Origin: Anaerolineaceae bacterium
Lineage (GTDB): Bacteria; Chloroflexota; Anaerolineae; Aggregatilineales; Phototrophicaceae
Assembly: GCA_002699585.1 (NCBI GenBank)
Contig: PABP01000014.1
Location: 1-64,000 of the forward strand
Direction: 5' to 3'
Length of the DNA: 64,000 bases
The position numbers and the translations under genes are program-made. This document shows positions 9,786 to 42,346 of this stretch, in pieces. The notes beneath the pieces were generated by a model, which made no database searches, was not told the origin of the DNA, and saw only the letters and a list, made by a program, of their open reading frames with translations. Each line of letters opens with the position of its first letter. Position 1 is the first letter of the stretch.

Positions 9786-10184
9786 ATGTCCATAAAAAAT
9801 GGCATACAAGCTCAAATGCAAGCCGCCATCAGCCAGTGGGAGGATGTGACGGTGGTATCACATCGCTTCGGTGGTATCGAGTTCCGGCTGGGCAAAGTGG
9901 AAATTGGCCACGTTCACCGCGATGGTCTTGTGGATATTCCCTTTACACGCGCTATCCGTGAGGTGGTCGTCGCGGAGATGTTGGCTGAGCCGCATCATAT
10001 CCTGCCGGACACGGGTTGGATTAGTTTCTGGGTGGGGCGTACGGGCCGTGTCGAGCAAGCGATTGATCTGATGCGCTTATCGTACCTGCAAAAGCGCAGC
10101 CGCCGAGAGCCTGCTGCCGCTGCCAAAGCGGAAACACTGCCTTTCAGTCAGGATGTTTTGGCTGCTGCGTTCCCAGTTCGATAA
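9786..10184 (+). CDS. luciferase-domain-like protein (DUF5519)
   Basis: The 132-residue protein matches a small family annotated as luciferase domain or DUF5519. Its features are HRFGGIEFRLGKVEIGHVHRDG, DIPFTRAIREVVVAEM, and HHILPDTGWISFWV, followed by a helix RVEQAIDLMRLSYLQKR. Function is unknown; the luciferase name comes from weak similarity and should not be read as activity. CGGAGGA lies just before the ATG at 9786, which makes the longer frame from 9702 unlikely. A strong terminator follows. Confidence 0.75.
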   Translation: MSIKNGIQAQMQAAISQWEDVTVVSHRFGGIEFRLGKVEIGHVHRDGLVDIPFTRAIREVVVAEMLAEPHHILPDTGWISFWVGRTGRVEQAIDLMRLSYLQKRSRREPAAAAKAETLPFSQDVLAAAFPVR

Positions 10185-10259: not shown

Positions 10260-10610
10260 TTACGCAGGAGTGGCCTCGAATTGATTTAATGCTTCCAGGG
10301 CTTCGCAGCCATACATCACAGAGGGTCCGCCGCCCATCAGCACGGCGACACCAATTGCCTCGGTGATTTCTTCACGGCTGGCGCCAGCGTTGAGGGCATC
10401 ATGCACGTGGAAAGCGATGCAACCGTCACAGTGGACCGCAATGGCGATCCCCAGCGCGATCAGTTCTTTGCTCTTGGTCGTCAAAGCGCCCTCAGTTGAT
10501 CCCGCCACATGGAGCTGCGAGAATGCCTTCATGGTGTCCGGGATTTCTTGGCCCAATTGGCCCATGAGTTGCCGCATATGCGTATAATGTTCAGGGAAGT
10601 TTTTAGCCAT
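10260..10610 (-). CDS. carboxymuconolactone decarboxylase (AhpD-like) family protein
   Basis: This is a 116-residue member of the CMD/AhpD family. The redox motif Cys61-Asp-Gly-Cys64 is followed by His68 (CDGCIAFHVH), the arrangement of AhpD-like peroxidase partners. The surrounding helices KELIALGIAIAVH and ASREEITEAIGVAVLMGGGP are typical. It likely works as a small disulfide reductase or peroxidase-type antioxidant protein, though substrates are not known. AGGAG precedes the ATG. It is monocistronic. Confidence 0.88.
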   Translation of the reverse strand: MAKNFPEHYTHMRQLMGQLGQEIPDTMKAFSQLHVAGSTEGALTTKSKELIALGIAIAVHCDGCIAFHVHDALNAGASREEITEAIGVAVLMGGGPSVMYGCEALEALNQFEATPA

Positions 10611-10821
10611 TATATTGGCTCCTTGGGATGCACGTTGTTGTAAACTTCAAAGCTACCTATATTGTATGCCGTGCCCTGGATTTATATAGTGAATAATTTC
10701 ACAATCAATTGTGAAAAATGTCACTATTGAGTCTGCGTATCATTTGTGGAATTGGTTACTTATTCGGTGCGAGTGATTATTGAGGTTATGCTGTTATGTG
10801 TGTATGAAACATTTTGTCTAA

Positions 10822-11460
10822 TTATTCAAGTTCTTCAAGTTTTTGTATCCACGCATCAAAAAGACGACATTTTTCCCTAATTCTGGGTAAACCGATTTCG
10901 ATTGCAGCAAGAGAACCATATAATGGTTTGTCATAATGAAGGATTATTTGCTTTACTCTTTTACTAGGTGCGGTAAGGACATTGTCATTGATTTCCTCAG
11001 GTGACGTGTAGTTTTTCATCACAGCAGCAATTCTATTTGCTTTATCTGGATGGCCAATTCCTATAGCAAACCTTGTTGGGTCGCTGAATAGAAGCGCCTC
11101 AAACTCGTGCATTTGTATGTAAGGTAAAAATCGTCTGCTTGTATTTTCACCAACATTTTTTATAAATCCAGAAAGCATTTCTTTGCAAACTGCTGTACTC
11201 TTTTCTTCTATTGATCCCTCGCTAATTTTTCCTGGAAAATCAGATGGTAATCCATAGAAATCAATGAAAGTTGTACAGTAAGCTTCATTCTCTTTTCTCA
11301 AAACCTTTTGTGCATCGCTCCATATTCTTGAGAAAGATACATGGCCTCTTAAGGTTAGTGGAATTAATAAGATCTTCTTATTGTAAAAGTGGCTTGATAG
11401 CACTTCATTCACAAAGGTTTCTTCTGTTTGTCCTTCACATAGGATGTATATACGTCTCAC
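10822..11460 (-). CDS. DUF4276 protein, Toprim-like nuclease partner
   Basis: The 212-residue protein matches DUF4276, whose fold is related to Toprim nucleases. The acidic motif CEGQTEETF holds Glu9. TTFIDFYGLPSDFPG gives the DxxG-like second acidic site, and MHEFEALLFSDP is the third hallmark. It begins with GTG overlapping the stop of the upstream ATPase gene by four bases (GTGA), so the two are translationally coupled. Such ATPase plus Toprim-like pairs resemble split OLD-family defence proteins (PARIS AriA/AriB being the best known). Sequence is AT-rich relative to the flanks. Nuclease activity is an inference. Confidence 0.75.
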   Translation of the reverse strand: MRRIYILCEGQTEETFVNEVLSSHFYNKKILLIPLTLRGHVSFSRIWSDAQKVLRKENEAYCTTFIDFYGLPSDFPGKISEGSIEEKSTAVCKEMLSGFIKNVGENTSRRFLPYIQMHEFEALLFSDPTRFAIGIGHPDKANRIAAVMKNYTSPEEINDNVLTAPSKRVKQIILHYDKPLYGSLAAIEIGLPRIREKCRLFDAWIQKLEELE

Positions 11461-12560
11461 TTTGGCTTGCCTCCGAGAACATTCTTTTCCCAGAGTTCTC
11501 CCACTGTATAATCTTCTAGCCAGGATTCAAAGTCATGTTGATCTAGACGTTTGAAGACAGATACTTCATCTTCACGCTCAACTACTATAATATCTTCTAG
11601 TGAAACTTCATTGAGAAGAGGGACAGATTGAGTAGATATAATTAGCTGAGTTTGAGTCGATGCAGAACGCATCAACGAAGCTAAGAGCGTTATTGCAAAT
11701 GGATGTAACCCTAATTCAGGTTCATCAATAATGATCGTTGATGGAGGGTCAGGCTGTAACAATGCAGTTGCTAAACAGATAAAGCGAATCGACCCATCAG
11801 ATAGCTGAGTTGGCCACATTGGATAATCGCTATTACGTTGACGCCATAAAAGCCTTATTTGCTGATCATCAGAGCTAAGATTACGCGGCTCCAATATAAA
11901 ATCATCAAAAAATGGTATAGCTAATTGTACTGTTCGCCTTATAAGATCATACGTGTCTCGGTCATCTTGTCTCATTCTATAAAGAAAAGCTGCTAAGTTT
12001 GATCCATCTCGTCTTAGGAATCTAGTGTCATCGATTGAGCCAAAACGTTTAACTCCAGCAGTATCACTAGTATCGTGAAAATGATATATCTTCCAACTAG
12101 ATATTGATGCATATGTATAATTTGCCATCCTGTATGGCTGATTAAAATCAACATCATCAATTAAGTAAGCTTCTCTATGACCTGAACCTATAGAATATCC
12201 ATCGGGATATCTATCTTGATAGAATAGTAGTTCATCAGTGAAGACAAAGCTTCCTTCATCAGTTGGCTCCAAACTAAATTGGTATCCATTCGATCCAAAA
12301 TGAACATGAGACATTAACTCTTTTGTTTCCTTTATGCCAAAAGTTAGGAGACGATCAGCTCCACCCCGCTTGGTTACCCATTCCTGTAAATCTTGTTCTA
12401 CTAATCGATTTAACATATCAAAATAAGTGACAAAATTGCTTTTGCCTGCACCATTGGGTCCGATCAAAACATTGAGATTAGTCAAATTGAATTTCTCAAG
12501 ATTTTTGATTGACTGAAAACCTTTTATGGTTAGGTACTTGATTGGATACTTGTTTACCAT
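11457..12560 (-). CDS. AAA family ATPase, OLD/SMC-like (AAA_21)
   Basis: The 367-residue ATPase has an ABC/SMC-type head. Walker A is GPNGAGKSN (about 34-42), an LSDGS signature lies near 253-257, Walker B plus D-loop is TIIIDEPELGLHP (about 275-287), and the switch strand is LIISTQS. The middle region is long and beta-rich, as in RecF/OLD-like ATPases, with no coiled coil long enough for SMC. The gene overlaps the downstream DUF4276 gene by four bases. The pair forms a two-gene unit of foreign, AT-rich composition, most likely anti-phage defence. Confidence 0.8.
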   Translation of the reverse strand: MVNKYPIKYLTIKGFQSIKNLEKFNLTNLNVLIGPNGAGKSNFVTYFDMLNRLVEQDLQEWVTKRGGADRLLTFGIKETKELMSHVHFGSNGYQFSLEPTDEGSFVFTDELLFYQDRYPDGYSIGSGHREAYLIDDVDFNQPYRMANYTYASISSWKIYHFHDTSDTAGVKRFGSIDDTRFLRRDGSNLAAFLYRMRQDDRDTYDLIRRTVQLAIPFFDDFILEPRNLSSDDQQIRLLWRQRNSDYPMWPTQLSDGSIRFICLATALLQPDPPSTIIIDEPELGLHPFAITLLASLMRSASTQTQLIISTQSVPLLNEVSLEDIIVVEREDEVSVFKRLDQHDFESWLEDYTVGELWEKNVLGGKPK

Positions 12561-12783
12561 TGAATACAGGCCCTAATCTTTTATATCAACGTGTGTTGAT
12601 GTTTTGTGGCTTGTTTTGGTTGCTTTGGTGACGATGATACCACGAGGTATTTATACTTGCATGTGAATAGAACATTAATTCTTCATAGTCAAATTATTAT
12701 ACATCGTTGTGGCTTGCACCCTATTCAGAAAATCAGTACGCTTTGGCCATATCTTCTCACCTTGTATGACTGTGGTCGTGCCC

Positions 12784-14037
12784 ATGAAGCTGAGCGATTT
12801 TCTGCGTTTTGAATACATCGTGTATCCCTTGTGGCGGCGGGCTGTTCCCAACTGGCTGAAGCCCATTAGTGAGCAGGCCTTCGGGCGCGTATTTCCCGTC
12901 TATGTGGATCAGCATCCACCGCAGGAGCTGACCGAGATGGCGCGTTACCTGGGGGACGAGGGCATCATAGATGGCGGCGACCTGAACGATATTGTCGCCT
13001 TGTTGGAAAATGCCCCTAAGCCATGTGTGGTCGATCTCGATGCTTCGCCGCCCGCGCACGATGGCAGCTTAGTACGCATTCCGGCGCAGTGGGAACACAC
13101 CGAGCGCGTCCTGATGAGTTGGGGCGCGATCTATCCGCCGCTGTGGCCGATGCATGCCCAAATGGCCGAAGCCATCAGCCAGGTAGCCGAGGTCGAAATT
13201 CTGGTGTCATCCGAACTGTGGGGGCGGGCTGTATGGGCCTACCTGCAACAGCGTGGACGGGCCAATATGGCGCGTATCCATCCGCTGGTGCTGCCGACCA
13301 ATGACATCTGGATACGCGATTACGGTCCCATCATGGGCGTGGATGCCAGCGGGCAGAAGGTCGCGCTCAACCCGATTTATGCTGTCTTGCCGCAGTATCC
13401 GCAGGGGTTGGATGATGGCATGACCAATGCCTGGAGCGCTTATCACGGTTATCCCGTGCAACCCTTGAATTTGCACACGGAAGGCGGCAATCTGTGGTCA
13501 GATGGGCAGGGGACGCTCATCATGTCCTCGCAGATTTTTTACAGCAACCGTTTTTACAATCGGCGCACGCTGGAAGATTATCTGCATACCGTCATCGACT
13601 ATGACAAGCTTATCATCTCGCCGCGCCTGACGCTGGAAGAAACTGGGCATGTCGATCTGCTGATGAAATTGGCCAGTGCGGATACGGTCTTCGTTAGTGC
13701 CAATACCTCCGCCAGCACGTACCAGGTGCTCAACAAAGCCAAGCGTCAATTTGAGCGCGAAACCAACGCCCAGGGCCAGCCTTATAACGTCATTGAACTG
13801 CCCACGCCGGAGCTATACCTCAACTGGGTGACGTACAGCATCCGCCGCGCCTATACCAACGCGCTGACGGTCAATGGCCGTGTGTTGGTGCCTGTATTCG
13901 GCATTCCTCAGGATGACATTGCCCTGCGCACCTACGAAACTCACCTGCCGGACTATGACATTATCCCGATTGATAGTGCGGTCGGTATCAATGGCGGTGG
14001 TGCGGTCCATTGCATGACCAAGGAAGTGCCGGGATGA
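12784..14037 (+). CDS. agmatine/peptidyl-arginine deiminase family protein
   Basis: The 417-residue protein belongs to the guanidino-group hydrolases that convert agmatine or arginine side chains to citrulline-type products with ammonia release. The conserved motifs are NDIWIRDYGP, HTEGGNL and LEETGHVD, and the catalytic Cys410 lies in GGGAVHCMTKEVP. The first 100 residues or so, before WEHTERVLMSWG, form an extension not usual for agmatine deiminase (about 340-380 residues). It has a possible helix-rich beginning. No good ribosome site is seen; ATG at 12766 is also possible. No putrescine pathway genes are adjacent, so the substrate is open. Confidence 0.8.
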   Translation: MKLSDFLRFEYIVYPLWRRAVPNWLKPISEQAFGRVFPVYVDQHPPQELTEMARYLGDEGIIDGGDLNDIVALLENAPKPCVVDLDASPPAHDGSLVRIPAQWEHTERVLMSWGAIYPPLWPMHAQMAEAISQVAEVEILVSSELWGRAVWAYLQQRGRANMARIHPLVLPTNDIWIRDYGPIMGVDASGQKVALNPIYAVLPQYPQGLDDGMTNAWSAYHGYPVQPLNLHTEGGNLWSDGQGTLIMSSQIFYSNRFYNRRTLEDYLHTVIDYDKLIISPRLTLEETGHVDLLMKLASADTVFVSANTSASTYQVLNKAKRQFERETNAQGQPYNVIELPTPELYLNWVTYSIRRAYTNALTVNGRVLVPVFGIPQDDIALRTYETHLPDYDIIPIDSAVGINGGGAVHCMTKEVPG

Positions 14038-14704: not shown

Positions 14705-14785
14705 GGGGCAGTGGTGGAATGGCAGACACGGAAGTCTTAAAAACTTCTGCCTTCGGGCGTGTGGGTTCGAATCCCACCTGCCTCA
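14705..14785 (+). tRNA. tRNA-Leu (anticodon UAA)
   Basis: The acceptor stem GGGGCAG (14705-14711) pairs with CTGCCTC (14778-14784) with one G-U, followed by discriminator A. The D region reads TGGTGGAATGGCAGACAC, as in leucine tRNAs. The anticodon stem GAAGT/ACTTC encloses loop CTTAAAA, giving anticodon TAA. A long variable arm (TGCCTTCGGGCGT) and T arm GTGGG-TTCGAAT-CCCAC follow. The 3' CCA is not encoded. Confidence 0.95.
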
Positions 14786-39791: not shown

Positions 39792-40217
39792 TTAGTCAAC
39801 AACTGTGATGCCCATGTTGCGGCATGTGCCTTCGACCTGCTTCATCGCGGCTTCGATGTCGAGGGCGTTCATGTCGTTGAACTTGACTTCGGCAATTTCC
39901 CGCACCTGTTGACGGGTCAACTGGCCGACGGTTTCCTCAATCGAGTTCCCGGCACCTTTGGGCACGCCTGCGGCCTTCTTAATCAAGAACGCGGTCGGCG
40001 GGCTTTTCAGGATGAAGCGGAAGGAACCGTCCTGGAAAATGGTGATTTCCGCGGGGACAATTTCCCCAATGCGGTTGGCGGTACGGGCGTTGTAATCCTT
40101 GACGAAGCCCATCAGGTTGACGCCATGTTGGGCCAGCGCTGGACCAATCGGCGGGGCCGGGTTGGCTTTGCCCGCTTGGATCTGTAGCGTGACGATTGCT
40201 TTGACTTTCTTTGCCAT
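39792..40217 (-). CDS. rplK: 50S ribosomal protein L11
   Basis: The 141-residue product matches L11 in full: [39 protein letters not shown], then [21 protein letters not shown]11 sits at the GTPase-associated centre of the large subunit, where it binds 23S rRNA. AAGGT lies before the ATG. It is in the usual order nusG-rplK-rplA, but here separated from nusG by two foreign plus-strand genes. Confidence 0.97.
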
Positions 40218-40676
40218 GTGGTTTTACCTTCTTAACTCACTTGATTTTCAGCAGCATCGATGCCAGATGCTGCACACTCATTGATCGACTCGTTTGTCTG
40301 ATAGGGCACTTGTGGCCAGGTATGAGACGCACGAAGGGCGTAGGTATGCTACGCCCTGTCCAATTATATGGATGTTAGCCTGTTTATCCAGGGACATCTC
40401 GCCCAAGATTTTTAAATGAAATAACAACTCATGATGATGTGATGTTTGTTCTTAGATAACTTTGGTAACAAATTGCAGGTATCTTGTCTAATGACTAAAA
40501 CTATATTAGCTCAAATAGAATGTTTGGTAATGAATCATATGTTAATAAGATTTGTGTTATTTATAAATATTACTAAATCATTGACTAGCTTAATTATTTT
40601 TTATAGGATATAGGTGAAGTCGACTTCAGCTTGAAACTATCTCAATGTAGTAGTCAGATACTTCAGGAGAAATATA
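40218..40676. other. AT-rich intergenic region, rplK leader and beginning of inserted segment
   Basis: The first 150 bases hold the rplK promoter and leader. From about 40420 to 40676 the sequence is strongly AT-rich with no frame. It contains no tRNA, terminator or inverted repeat I could place. Confidence 0.5.
40335..40368 (-). promoter_or_regulatory. rplK promoter -10 and leader hairpin
   Basis: On the minus strand TATAAT lies at 40368-40363 (a weak TGGAT-like -35 is about 16-17 bases upstream). Just after it, AGGGCGTAG and CTACGCCCT form a perfect nine-base stem (plus coordinates 40335-40343 and 40349-40357). The hairpin may fall in the leader near the 5' end of the rplK mRNA. In E. coli the L1 protein represses rplK-rplA by binding the leader, so this is a candidate site. 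Confidence 0.4.
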
Positions 40677-41255
40677 ATGCTAAAATCAACGTACAAATTG
40701 GTTGCTCTATGTATCCTTCTTGCACTATCCGCTAGTACTATGATGGCTCAAACTGAAGATAACCACTGTGTCATATGGTCCGTGGAAGATGGTGGAGGAA
40801 CATTAGGATGCTATTCTACTTTAGCCGAAGCGATTCGCATTGCAACGGATGGTAAAGTAGATTTACCAAATAGTGCAGATATGAATACAGTAGATCAAGC
40901 CCTTAAGGAACATGCAATAGCTGAGCAAGTTGATAGGCAACCTAATTCCGAATTGAATATGCAACCAGCAAGTAGCACTGTCGTTGGAATTCTCTATGAT
41001 TGGACTAATTATCAGAGTTCGAACTTCATCCTAATTGTTTCCGACCCTACTGGCTGTGCTACATATGGTTGGGGATTTAATTTGCCTAGTACTTGGCAAA
41101 ATCGAGTTGAATCAGCAAGAGGCTATCAAGGATGTAACTACACACAAGTCTATGACCTTTTAGATTTCCAAGGTCCAACCTACAAATGCCCTAATGATTG
41201 TTCAACTTTCCTTGGATTAAATAATGATGCTGATTCTGTATATGTTTGGCCGTAG
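40677..41255 (+). CDS. secreted protein with beta/gamma-crystallin-like domain, inserted
   Basis: The 192-residue protein begins with a signal peptide (MLKSTYKLVALCILLALSAS) cleaved near MMAQTED. The last 90 residues have ILYDWTNYQSSNFILIV, GCATYGWGFNLPSTWQNRV, GCNYTQVYDLLDFQG and LGLNNDADSVYVWP. These look like paired crystallin or peptidase inhibitor (I36)-type motifs with several Cys. It is AT-rich and unlike its neighbours. It lies on the plus strand inside the secE-nusG-rplK-rplA block. CAGGAGAAAT precedes the ATG. Confidence 0.7.
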   Translation: MLKSTYKLVALCILLALSASTMMAQTEDNHCVIWSVEDGGGTLGCYSTLAEAIRIATDGKVDLPNSADMNTVDQALKEHAIAEQVDRQPNSELNMQPASSTVVGILYDWTNYQSSNFILIVSDPTGCATYGWGFNLPSTWQNRVESARGYQGCNYTQVYDLLDFQGPTYKCPNDCSTFLGLNNDADSVYVWP

Positions 41256-41275
41256 CAGCAAAAAGGAATAATGAT

Positions 41276-41563
41276 ATGTTAGTTGGCAACAGGAAGACAA
41301 AATCAACAAATCTAGTGGCCATTGTACCTAGAATGTGGAGAATAACAGCTATAATGATGATTATCATTATAACTATGCTACTCCTCGCATCTACAAAAAC
41401 AGTCGTTTATACGTGTCAACAGGGCGTTTTACTTTCTGAAACCTCTACCCTGGAAGGTGAAATTCCGCCTTCTCACACAGAAACGCAAGTAATCGCACAA
41501 GGCGGGTGTTTTTTCCAAGTTCGATGGTTTGACGGACAGTATATCTCGTTGTTGTCCAACTAA
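41276..41563 (+). CDS. small membrane-anchored protein, inserted
   Basis: The 95-residue protein has one membrane helix (ITAIMMIIIITMLLLAS) after a short basic N-terminus. An outer region of about 50 residues follows with two Cys (VYTCQQG and QGGCFFQV). I do not recognise it. AAAAGGA precedes ATG 41276. It is the second gene of the AT-rich inserted segment and is followed by a strong plus-strand terminator, so it probably shares a transcript with the gene before it. Confidence 0.6.
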   Translation: MLVGNRKTKSTNLVAIVPRMWRITAIMMIIIITMLLLASTKTVVYTCQQGVLLSETSTLEGEIPPSHTETQVIAQGGCFFQVRWFDGQYISLLSN

Positions 41564-41588
41564 TGAAATAATCTGTTGTAAATAGGCA

Positions 41589-41631
41589 TGGACAAAGAGT
41601 ATGCGAAGCAAATACTCTTTGTCCTTTATTT
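41589..41631 (+). terminator. strong terminator of the inserted gene pair
   Basis: GGACAAAGAGTAT (41590-41602) pairs perfectly with ATACTCTTTGTCC (41612-41624), followed by TTTATTT. It ends at the nusG stop and may also slow minus-strand transcription out of nusG. Confidence 0.85.
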
Positions 41632-41632
41632 G

Positions 41633-42346
41633 CTAGACTTTTTCGACTTCCAGGAAGCCCAGTTCGACCGGTGTCTCGCGTCCGAAGAAATCCACCATCA
41701 CGCGGACTTTTAAGCGGTCGGGGTCAATCGAATTGACCGTGCCGATGAAGTCGTTGAACGGCCCACCCACAATACGGACCTTCTGGCCCACTTTGAAGTC
41801 GGCGCGCACTGTCGGGCCGCTGGTGTCGTCCATGCGGTCCATGATGGCTTTGACTTCTTCCACGCGCAGTGGGGTCGGCGTATTGCCCATACCGACGAAG
41901 CCCGTGACACCCGGAGTGTTACGCACCACATACCAGCTATCTTCATCGAGGATCATCTCGACCAGGATATAGCCGGGGAAGACGCGCTTCTCGATGGTCT
42001 TGCGTTTACCGTCTTTGACCTCGATCTCTTCTTCAGTCGGGATGACCACATCGAAAATCCGGTCGCGCATGCCCATCGTCTCGATACGCTGCTCAATCGC
42101 GTGGCGAACCTTATTTTCGTAGCCGCTGTAGCAATGCACAACATACCAATGACGTTGATCTTCTTCGTTCTGGCCCGTGCCATCGTCCAGCACAATCTTA
42201 ACATCATCGACCGGATCATTACCATCATCCATGAAAACCGGTTGTGGATCATAATCCGGCTTTTGTTCCGGTTGGTTTTGTTGTTCGTTTTGTTGTTCGT
42301 TTGACTCTGAACCTTCCGGCATTGGGAAGATATTCTCGTCAACCAT
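41633..42346 (-). CDS. nusG: transcription termination/antitermination factor NusG
   Basis: NusG binds RNA polymerase and Rho. The 237-residue protein has the NGN domain from about residue 67 (HWYVVHCYSGYENKVRHAI, RKTIEKRVFPGYILVEM, TPGVTGFVG) and a C-terminal KOW domain (VGQKVRIVGGPFNDFIGTV). Residues 1-66 form an extra acidic, Gln/Asn-rich segment; most NusG have only a few residues here. The extension may be a lineage trait. It lies downstream of secE and upstream of the inserted segment and rplK. Confidence 0.95.
   Translation of the reverse strand: MVDENIFPMPEGSESNEQQNEQQNQPEQKPDYDPQPVFMDDGNDPVDDVKIVLDDGTGQNEEDQRHWYVVHCYSGYENKVRHAIEQRIETMGMRDRIFDVVIPTEEEIEVKDGKRKTIEKRVFPGYILVEMILDEDSWYVVRNTPGVTGFVGMGNTPTPLRVEEVKAIMDRMDDTSGPTVRADFKVGQKVRIVGGPFNDFIGTVNSIDPDRLKVRVMVDFFGRETPVELGFLEVEKV

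What the first reader, a model, noticed from the sequence alone, without database searches (positions are those of the whole stretch)
10822..12560. Two-gene split ATPase/Toprim-like defence candidate
An SMC/OLD-type AAA ATPase overlaps a DUF4276 gene by four bases, on an AT-rich island. Known anti-phage systems use the same pairing with other Toprim families (PARIS AriA/AriB, Gabija, retron OLD). This pair with DUF4276 may be a less described branch. No phage-inhibitor gene is next to it.
Basis: partly seen in the sequence, partly recalled or inferred. Interest (0 to 1): 0.7.

Follow-up and report, generated by a model that had tools for sequence, protein, structure and literature searches.

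The report
Two-gene ATPase–nuclease phage-defence candidate
Two overlapping bacterial genes encode an ATPase and a partner that looks like a DNA- or RNA-cutting enzyme; the pair is already listed as a predicted phage-defence system, and both partners carry an unusual change in their active sites.

Summary
A 367-aa OLD/SMC-type ABC ATPase (11457-12560, -) overlaps a 212-aa DUF4276 protein (10822-11460, -) by GTGA, in the AT-richest stretch of the window (37% GC against 53%). DUF4276 models as a Toprim fold, nearest OLD, AriB and GajA among solved structures, and its conserved residues follow the order of OLD's two-metal site, with the second Asp of DxD replaced by Tyr. An ATPase lies immediately upstream in 131 of 135 loci; the other four are cut by contig ends. 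The pair is not new as an object: PADLOC lists it as candidate HEC-01 (A 1.6e-145, B 5e-71), and ABC-ATPase/Toprim pairs in BREX are in print. Not found in my searches: that DUF4276 splits into an acidic (DxD/E) group and a DxY branch, and that ATPases of the DxY branch carry Gln for the ABC H-loop His. This marks a lineage; it is not evidence of repeated co-change. Most likely mechanism: a phage-sensing ATPase restrains, then unleashes, a two-metal Toprim nuclease (abortive infection). Nuclease and defence activity are untested.

The parts
11457..12560 (-). Gene A (HEC-01A type): OLD/SMC-type ABC ATPase, 367 aa
   Evidence: Pfam AAA_21 5.6e-30; PADLOC HEC-01A PDLC04175 1.6e-145 over residues 5-366; AF2 model pLDDT 93.9; SMC/Rad50 heads Z up to 21.6, retron and Septu PtuA ATPases Z about 19
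10822..11460 (-). Gene B (HEC-01B type, DUF4276): Toprim nuclease candidate, 212 aa, GTG start
   Evidence: Pfam PF14103 1.2e-48; PADLOC HEC-01B PDLC04188 5.1e-71 over residues 1-211; AF2 model pLDDT 95.9; fold matches OLD, PARIS and Gabija chains
11457..11460 (-). GTGA stop/start overlap of A and B
   Evidence: sequence; in 54 of 79 related pairs A ends in ATGA or GTGA
11470..11474 (-). GGAGG, probable ribosome-binding site of B, inside the end of A
   Evidence: sequence
11422..11436 (-). Toprim motif 1 of B: E9 to E13 (EGQTE)
   Evidence: E9 and E13 in 63 of 63 rows of A2; over 108 wider rows E9 in 105, E13 in 85; aligned with OLD motif 1 by hhalign
11254..11262 (-). DxY motif of B: D67-F-Y69, in place of Toprim DxD
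   Evidence: D67 in 63 of 63, Y69 in 62 of 63; in 108 wider rows D67 in all, second position Y 77, D 18, E 9, N 2, S 1, L 1
11098..11106 (-). E119-F-E121, proposed counterpart of T506-x-E508 (metal B) of Bp OLD
   Evidence: E119 and E121 in 63 of 63; over 108 rows E119 in 96, E121 in 108; spacing compared with PMC6755086 passages
10927..10929 (-). K178, proposed counterpart of K562 of Bp OLD
   Evidence: 63 of 63, 91 of 108 wider rows; inferred from order and distance only
12435..12461 (-). Walker A of A (residues 34-42, GPNGAGKSN)
   Evidence: G34, N36, G39, K40 invariant in 45 rows
11697..11741 (-). Walker B and following region of A (IDEPELGLHP)
   Evidence: D279, E280, P281, E282, G284, L285, H286, P287 invariant in 45 rows
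11628..11630 (-). Q311 of A in the H-loop position (TQS), where OLD and divergent partners have His
   Evidence: T310, Q311, S312 invariant in 45 rows; OLD T298, H299 invariant in 11 rows; pairing with DxY counted; the name H-loop is recalled

Best explanation
The pair is a two-gene abortive-infection module of the split OLD kind. A is an ABC ATPase that forms an oligomer, senses a phage trigger and holds B inactive. B is a Toprim two-metal nuclease that is unleashed on infection and cuts host or shared nucleic acid (tRNA, as AriB does, or DNA, as OLD does), stopping the phage with the cell. Shown by computation: the predicted ATPase and Toprim folds, conserved residues in catalytic order, gene pairing, patchy presence and presence on plasmids. 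Inferred: complex formation, sensing, inhibition in the resting state, nuclease activity, substrate and defence itself. In this branch the second Asp of DxD is Tyr and the H-loop His of the ATPase is Gln. I expect cleavage to survive the first change, because D457A alone had no discernible effect in Bp OLD, and ATP turnover to be slowed by the second.
For: Fold: in the re-aligned PDB list for B, ranks 2-10 are OLD, PARIS (chain read as AriB), GajA and retron-Eco8 chains (Z 9.4-7.0), above the first unrelated row at 6.4; Foldseek's top three are OLD Toprim, E 1.6e-3 to 4.7e-3, prob 0.96-0.99. Sequence: hhalign of B against 11 OLD proteins, P 1.6e-4, probability 50%, over motif 1 only; divergent DUF4276 against OLD, P 7.4e-5, probability 62%, through the DxD motif. 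4 of 15 divergent members hit OLD-like_TOPRIM at E up to 1, best 2.6e-4; one gene (G003:C52) is found by both families in genome searches, 62.7 bits for DUF4276 and 24.8 for OLD-like_TOPRIM against a cut-off of 23.2, though only 21.9 in the protein scan. 18 of 108 DUF4276 proteins carry DxD. Active site: ligands of Bp OLD (E400, E404, D455, T506, E508) and K562 (PMC6755086 passages) are matched in order by E9, E13, D67, E119, E121, K178, each in 63 of 63 near relatives. Pairing. Defence context: HEC-01 models; restriction or BREX genes beside the pair in at least 11 of 47 loci and 3 of 8 plasmid stretches read. Mobility: 12 plasmid records; matches at E <= 0.001 in 17 of 61 near and 30 of 221 phylum genomes, own genome included (15 and 28 over the Pfam cut-off); none in the same-genus genome, which keeps both flanks.
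Against: No experiment. Fold scores are moderate: best Foldseek E 1.6e-3, and by the tool's own note Z under 8 can be chance; rank 1 is an uncharacterised archaeal protein (2p62, Z 9.6). hhalign probabilities are only 50-62%, and B against small DUF4435 and RloB sets gave nothing. One metal-A residue of OLD is replaced by Tyr. The residue mapping rests on order and spacing, not on a superposition; across the wider family E13, E119 and K178 vary (85, 96 and 91 of 108). Many loci, the window included, sit among ordinary genes, and no statistical enrichment of defence genes was shown: ORFs more than 6 kb away also held BREX and Gabija parts.
Confidence: 0.62

Rival explanations
1. Toxin-antitoxin-like or plasmid-addiction module: A neutralises the toxic nuclease B, and the pair persists by addiction rather than by defence. 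This overlaps with the main reading.
For: A matches AAA_21, whose Pfam title names a putative AbiEii toxin. Pairs occur on plasmids, one beside VapBC. Constant pairing, often with overlap.
Against: The pair lies inside or beside BREX and type III RM genes in several loci, which addiction alone does not explain. The would-be antitoxin is an ATPase with conserved Walker motifs.
Confidence: 0.18
2. DNA-repair or chromosome-maintenance pair of the RecF-RecR kind (SMC-like ATPase plus a Toprim protein without catalysis; recalled).
For: SMC, Rad50 and RecN heads are among the best fold matches of A.
Against: Patchy presence (17 of 61, 30 of 221), plasmid copies, linkage with restriction systems in part of the loci, and acidic residues kept in the order of a catalytic Toprim.
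Confidence: 0.06
3. Defence against plasmids or other mobile DNA rather than against phages.
For: Wadjet JetD is similar to the Toprim domain of OLD and works with an SMC-like ABC ATPase (review PMC10568477, passage).
Against: A is a 367-aa head without long coiled coil in the model, closer in size to AriA and PtuA (464-550 aa) than to an SMC; pairs live on plasmids themselves.
Confidence: 0.09
4. B of the DxY branch is a catalytically dead Toprim and acts only as a structural partner.
For: The second acidic residue of DxD is Tyr in 77 of 108 sampled DUF4276 proteins, a sample weighted to near relatives.
Against: E9, E13, D67, E119, E121 and K178 are each in 63 of 63 near relatives, which is unlikely for a dead site. 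Single loss of D457 in Bp OLD had no discernible effect (PMC6755086 passage).
Confidence: 0.1

Closest known systems
HEC-01 (PADLOC candidate; HEC = Hma-embedded candidate)
   Same: Best PADLOC models for both proteins: HEC-01A 1.6e-145, HEC-01B 5.1e-71, near full length, overlapping genes. HEC-01 is also reported by DefenseFinder in one paper (PMC12724379, passage).
   Different: Nothing found that separates it; the window copy stands alone rather than inside another system.
PARIS (AriA/AriB)
   Same: Separate ATPase and Toprim genes side by side; A matches an AriA model at 4.8e-28; the model of B aligns with chain 8ux9_A of the PARIS complex, read as AriB, at Z 7.8, rmsd 4.2, 168 residues.
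   Different: B is DUF4276, no DUF4435 hit; DxY site; Gln in the H-loop position.
OLD nucleases, GajA of Gabija, retron-Eco8 effector
   Same: ABC ATPase with Toprim; B aligns with OLD Toprim at Z up to 9.4, rmsd 4.5, 175 residues; same order of metal ligands.
   Different: Two genes rather than one chain; no fused A-B ORF among 142 A-hit and 130 B-hit ORFs; DxY instead of DxD; TQS instead of THS.
TOPRIM-linked OLD-ABC modules in BREX (PMC12839542)
   Same: The paper describes such pairs as backup effectors of BREX (passages); relatives of this pair lie beside PglZ or PglX in L042, L058, L070 and L102.
   Different: Its main text never names DUF4276 (0 occurrences), so I cannot tell whether its pairs include this family; supplements were not read.
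AbiL / RloB-type pairs
   Same: A matches an AbiLi model at 2.4e-23; B a marginal AbiLii hit, 0.035; a phage RloB-like model tops the viral fold list for B, E 0.03, prob 0.98.
   Different: No profile similarity of B to the three RloB sequences tried.

Membership tests
HEC-01 (PADLOC candidate) | Adjacent proteins matching HEC-01A and HEC-01B models | tested here: met
   A 1.6e-145, B 5.1e-71, near full length, overlapping genes; PADLOC's own cut-offs were not available
HEC-01 (PADLOC candidate) | Proven antiviral activity | not testable with these tools
   One paper names HEC-01 as a prediction only; no test of it seen
Toprim superfamily | Toprim fold with Glu after strand 1 and DxD after strand 3 | tested here: inconclusive
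   Predicted fold and Glu fit; DxD is DxY in the window protein but DxD in 18 of 108 family members
OLD-type two-metal nuclease | E400, E404, D455, D457, T506, E508 and K562 of Bp OLD in this order | tested here: inconclusive
   E9, E13, D67, E121, K178 fit; T506 position is E119; D457 position is Y69; no residue-level superposition was available
OLD nuclease (class 1-3) | ATPase and Toprim in one polypeptide | tested here: not met
   Two genes; 0 fused ORFs among 142 A-hit and 130 B-hit ORFs
PARIS | AriB effector of the DUF4435 family (family assignment recalled) | tested here: not met
   No DUF4435 hit at E up to 1; no AriB model among the 7 PADLOC hits of B
Gabija | GajA fused ATPase-Toprim with GajB helicase beside it | tested here: not met
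   A and B are separate; the flanking ORFs are a 116-aa ORF and a deiminase-like ORF, no helicase-sized neighbour
AbiL | AbiLi ATPase with AbiLii | tested here: inconclusive
   AbiLi model 2.4e-23 but AbiLii only 0.035
MADS | MAD3 ATPase over the curated NCBIfam cut-off | tested here: not met
   90.5 bits against a cut-off of 420; PADLOC mad3 8.4e-26 is a family resemblance
OLD-type ABC ATPase | Walker A, SDG signature, Walker B and H-loop His | tested here: inconclusive
   All but the His kept; Gln invariant in 45 rows, His invariant in 11 OLD rows

The most novel reading that the evidence does not exclude
The HEC-01 core branch is a separate enzymatic kind of split OLD system in which both active sites were re-tuned: a tyrosine sits where Toprim enzymes have the second DxD aspartate, and a glutamine replaces the ABC switch histidine. 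ATP would then be held rather than turned over, making A a slow clamp, and B would cleave with altered metal use, or even with the tyrosine taking part in the chemistry.
Probability: 0.25. Interest if true: 0.65.

Novelty: new variant of a known kind. Interest (0 to 1): 0.42.

Why it matters
DUF4276 is a Pfam family of unknown function that no paper in the searched library names, yet it lies beside an ABC ATPase in every locus checked that was not cut by a contig end. Placing it among the Toprim nucleases, with named candidate catalytic residues, turns a predicted but unexplained system into a directly testable enzyme. The two lineage-marking active-site changes give a clean question: which parts of OLD catalysis and ATP switching can a defence system do without? 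The pair also occurs alone, on plasmids, and beside BREX and restriction genes.

Tried and rejected
Release-factor similarity: B matched an archaeal aRF1 chain (phmmer 1.2e-4) and eRF1_2 (0.029); with the 63-row profile it faded to 0.034, so I treat it as chance.

Sequence search of solved structures with the divergent set A4 found nothing credible (best 0.065). RloB and DUF4435 profile comparisons gave no signal, but those sets had three sequences each. An unrelated control, B against the ATPase alignment, gave P 0.015, against 1.6e-4 and 7.4e-5 for OLD.

Rank 1 of the structural list, 2p62 PH0156 (Z 9.6), is an uncharacterised archaeal protein. I recall it as DUF3226 but did not test that; one of 15 divergent members hit DUF3226 at 0.048.

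Mobile-element borders: promoter and terminator counts were no higher than in shuffles, and repeats were short and two-copy; the only tRNA found in the window is at 14705.

Literature: 'DUF4276' 0 papers; 'HEC-01' together with 'PADLOC' 0. The looser search listed 30 papers; judging by titles 29 are about other things, and the one phage paper, PMC12724379, names HEC-01 once as a DefenseFinder prediction (passage; I first passed over it). Krishnan 2020 on ABC ATPases is not held, so that earlier classification was not read. The HEC naming preprint (Payne 2024) was seen only as a citation. Papers were seen as passages or listings; none was read whole.

The Hma expectation: although HEC stands for Hma-embedded, the operons I read resolved mostly to BREX, type III or type I RM, or a DrmD-like SNF2 helicase; HmaA matched only as a weaker hit of SNF2 proteins. 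Of ten neighbours picked, two (L049, L102 5677-8919) had no hit at 1e-30; of ten, two had none at 1e-10.

Full report
What is there. Two ORFs on the minus strand overlap by GTGA: A, 11457-12560, 367 aa, and B, 10822-11460, 212 aa. A GGAGG lies 9 nt before the GTG start of B. A is AAA_21 (5.6e-30) with weaker SMC_N; B is DUF4276 (1.2e-48). The pair has GC 37.1% against 53.0% for the rest of the window, and 4 of 1246 windows of its length are as low or lower.

Origin at this site. DUF4276 is found once in the genome. It has matches at E <= 0.001 in 17 of 61 near genomes, own included (15 over the Pfam cut-off), and none in the one same-genus genome. That genome keeps both flanks (window 9817-10144 at 71% and 12783-14035 at 77% identity) but has a 291-aa ORF between them instead of the 116-aa ORF and the pair (I read it as an alpha/beta-hydrolase). 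The slot is variable; gain by transfer is the simplest reading, loss is possible.

Pairing. In 82 loci from genome and viral collections, 79 have an ATPase ORF whose end lies within 300 bases of the B start on the same strand. Of the other three, L072 has it too (the start of B was called far upstream), and L034 and L106 are cut by the contig end. The 53rd, L011, gave no B ORF there but has an ATPase ORF. Together 131 of 135 (80 + 51), the other four cut by contig ends. Some loci are near copies (L063, L067, L068).

Is DUF4276 Toprim? The model of B is confident (pLDDT 95.9) and has strands 2-8, 30-36 and 61-67 alternating with helices, with E9 after strand 1 and D67 at the end of strand 3. 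Foldseek ranks three OLD Toprim structures first, E 1.6e-3 to 4.7e-3. After re-alignment rank 1 is an uncharacterised archaeal protein (2p62, Z 9.6), and ranks 2-10 are OLD, PARIS, GajA and retron-Eco8 chains, Z 9.4 to 7.0, against 6.4 for the first unrelated row. Profile comparison with 11 OLD proteins aligns motif 1 in register (P 1.6e-4, probability 50%); divergent DUF4276 members align through DxD (P 7.4e-5, probability 62%); 4 of 15 divergent members hit OLD-like_TOPRIM at E up to 1, best 2.6e-4. One of them, G003:C52, also scored 24.8 bits over that family's cut-off of 23.2 in a genome search, but 21.9 in the protein scan. Comparisons with three DUF4435 and three RloB proteins gave nothing. 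Each line is moderate; together they make Toprim identity likely.

Active site. In Bp OLD, E400, D455 and D457 serve metal A; E404, T506 and E508 serve metal B; K562 faces the phosphate (PMC6755086, passages). This branch of DUF4276 has E9, D67 and Y69, then E13, E119 and E121, and K178, in the same order and with the same short spacings (E-x3-E; D-x-Y for D-x-D; E-x-E for T-x-E). E9, E13, D67, E119, E121 and K178 are in 63 of 63 sequences, Y69 in 62 of 63 (62 of the 82 loci plus the window were aligned). Over 108 sequences of the wider family D67 and E121 are in 108, E9 in 105, E119 in 96, K178 in 91, E13 in 85; the second DxD position is Y 77, D 18, E 9, N 2, S 1, L 1. Seven rows were dropped before this count as short, cut, broken or duplicate: L001, L009, L013, L023, L153, L162, L166. 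The 77 is inflated, because 63 of the rows are near relatives of the window protein.

Tree. On 68 of these 108 rows, with that column left out, the Y rows with one L and one S fall on one side of a branch of weak support (94/63); 36 of those 39 form a well-supported core (100/100). Y needs 3 changes against 22.8 for shuffled labels; the bootstrap had not settled and some rows have long branches. So this is a lineage mark, not repeated evolution.

The partner. Core HEC-01A has TQS where OLD has THS: Gln in 45 of 45 rows, His in 11 of 11 OLD rows. Taking the best-scoring ATPase of each locus: Y with Q 73, Y with H 2, D, E, N or L with H 25, S with Q 1, D with Q 1 (L165). A further 27 rows are not counted: 20 have the ATPase residue (18 Q, 2 H) but no row in the B alignment, and 7 have no readable residue. 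Because the states cluster in lineages, the co-occurrence is no test of co-evolution. The two Y-with-H rows (L012, L018) lie at the edge of the Y side and may show the order of change.

Neighbourhood. Among 47 loci with at least 4 kb on either side (near copies left out), at least 11 (L030, L042, L048, L052, L058, L063, L070, L081, L087, L100, L102) have methylase-like, SNF2-helicase, REase_III, PglX, PglZ or BrxL genes near the pair. This is a lower bound, as only a few query proteins and ten hand-picked neighbours were tested. In a sample of 95 of 204 ORFs within 2.5 kb the leading PADLOC hits at 1e-30 were PglZ (3), type III RM and DrmD-like (2 each; 25 of 74 families shown). In 110 of 173 ORFs beyond 6 kb there were BrxC (2), BrxA, GajB, an RT-helicase and PDC-S20 (25 of 30 shown). 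The Pfam families shown include many ordinary genes in both sets. I claim association in part of the loci, not statistical enrichment. Of eight plasmid stretches read, out of 12 records with a match, the pair of A. veronii lies between MTase_III and REase_III, that of Ideonella between a methylase and an Mrr protein, that of A. media between a DrmD-like helicase and a short methylase; in two Nostoc plasmids it lies near an AIPR gene or near HNH and Piwi genes; three show nothing of the kind. Phage records: 0 of 50,697.

Known or new. PADLOC holds the pair as HEC-01, and one paper reports HEC-01 as a DefenseFinder prediction in a gut bacterium (PMC12724379, passage). A 2026 BREX survey describes ABC-ATPase/TOPRIM pairs as backup effectors and credits an earlier classification, but its main text never names DUF4276 (PMC12839542, passages). 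PARIS supplies the best mechanistic model: a hexameric ATPase sensor, a sequestered Toprim RNase, release on a phage trigger (PMC12409363, passages). The window pair most likely works in that way but is not PARIS by its effector family. I found no description of the DxY or TQS features, but Krishnan 2020 and the Payne preprint could not be read.

Verdict. Observation confirmed, structural reading supported, defence plausible and untested; a known candidate, with a pair of active-site changes that mark its branch.

Noticed in passing
window 10263-12560; L145: The slot between two conserved genes holds a different ORF (291 aa, read as alpha/beta-hydrolase) in the same-genus genome, so it may be a small site of gene turnover.
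   Followed up: partly
window about 39900-41900: A second AT-rich stretch (GC about 0.42), unrelated to the pair.
   Followed up: no
window, 59 other ORFs: PD-T4-6 (up to 4e-68), mad6, C3a189 and MkoA models each match one ORF; probably an ordinary Ser/Thr kinase (one ORF has a protein kinase domain), though the tally does not say whether it is the same ORF.
   Followed up: no
window, 59 other ORFs: Two ORFs match GH127 beta-L-arabinofuranosidase.
   Followed up: no
L165: A divergent DUF4276 protein keeps DxD while its ATPase has Gln in the H-loop position, the only such case among the pairs counted.
   Followed up: no
L153 (G146): A HEC-01 copy whose DUF4276 frame holds an in-frame stop, so probably a decayed copy.
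   Followed up: no
G003, G083, G266: Three DUF4276 matches at E <= 0.001 in each genome, so several branches can coexist in one cell.
   Followed up: no
L111, L177: Nostoc plasmids carry the pair beside an AIPR-family gene, or near Piwi, PD-(D/E)XK and HNH genes.
   Followed up: no
L109: An OLD-type 'ATP-dependent endonuclease' (PADLOC Old, 3.2e-57) lies in the same A. veronii plasmid cluster, just before the methylase.
   Followed up: no
L031, L076: ATPase ORFs with long upstream extensions (849 and 720 aa); content not examined, may be start mis-calls or fusions.
   Followed up: no
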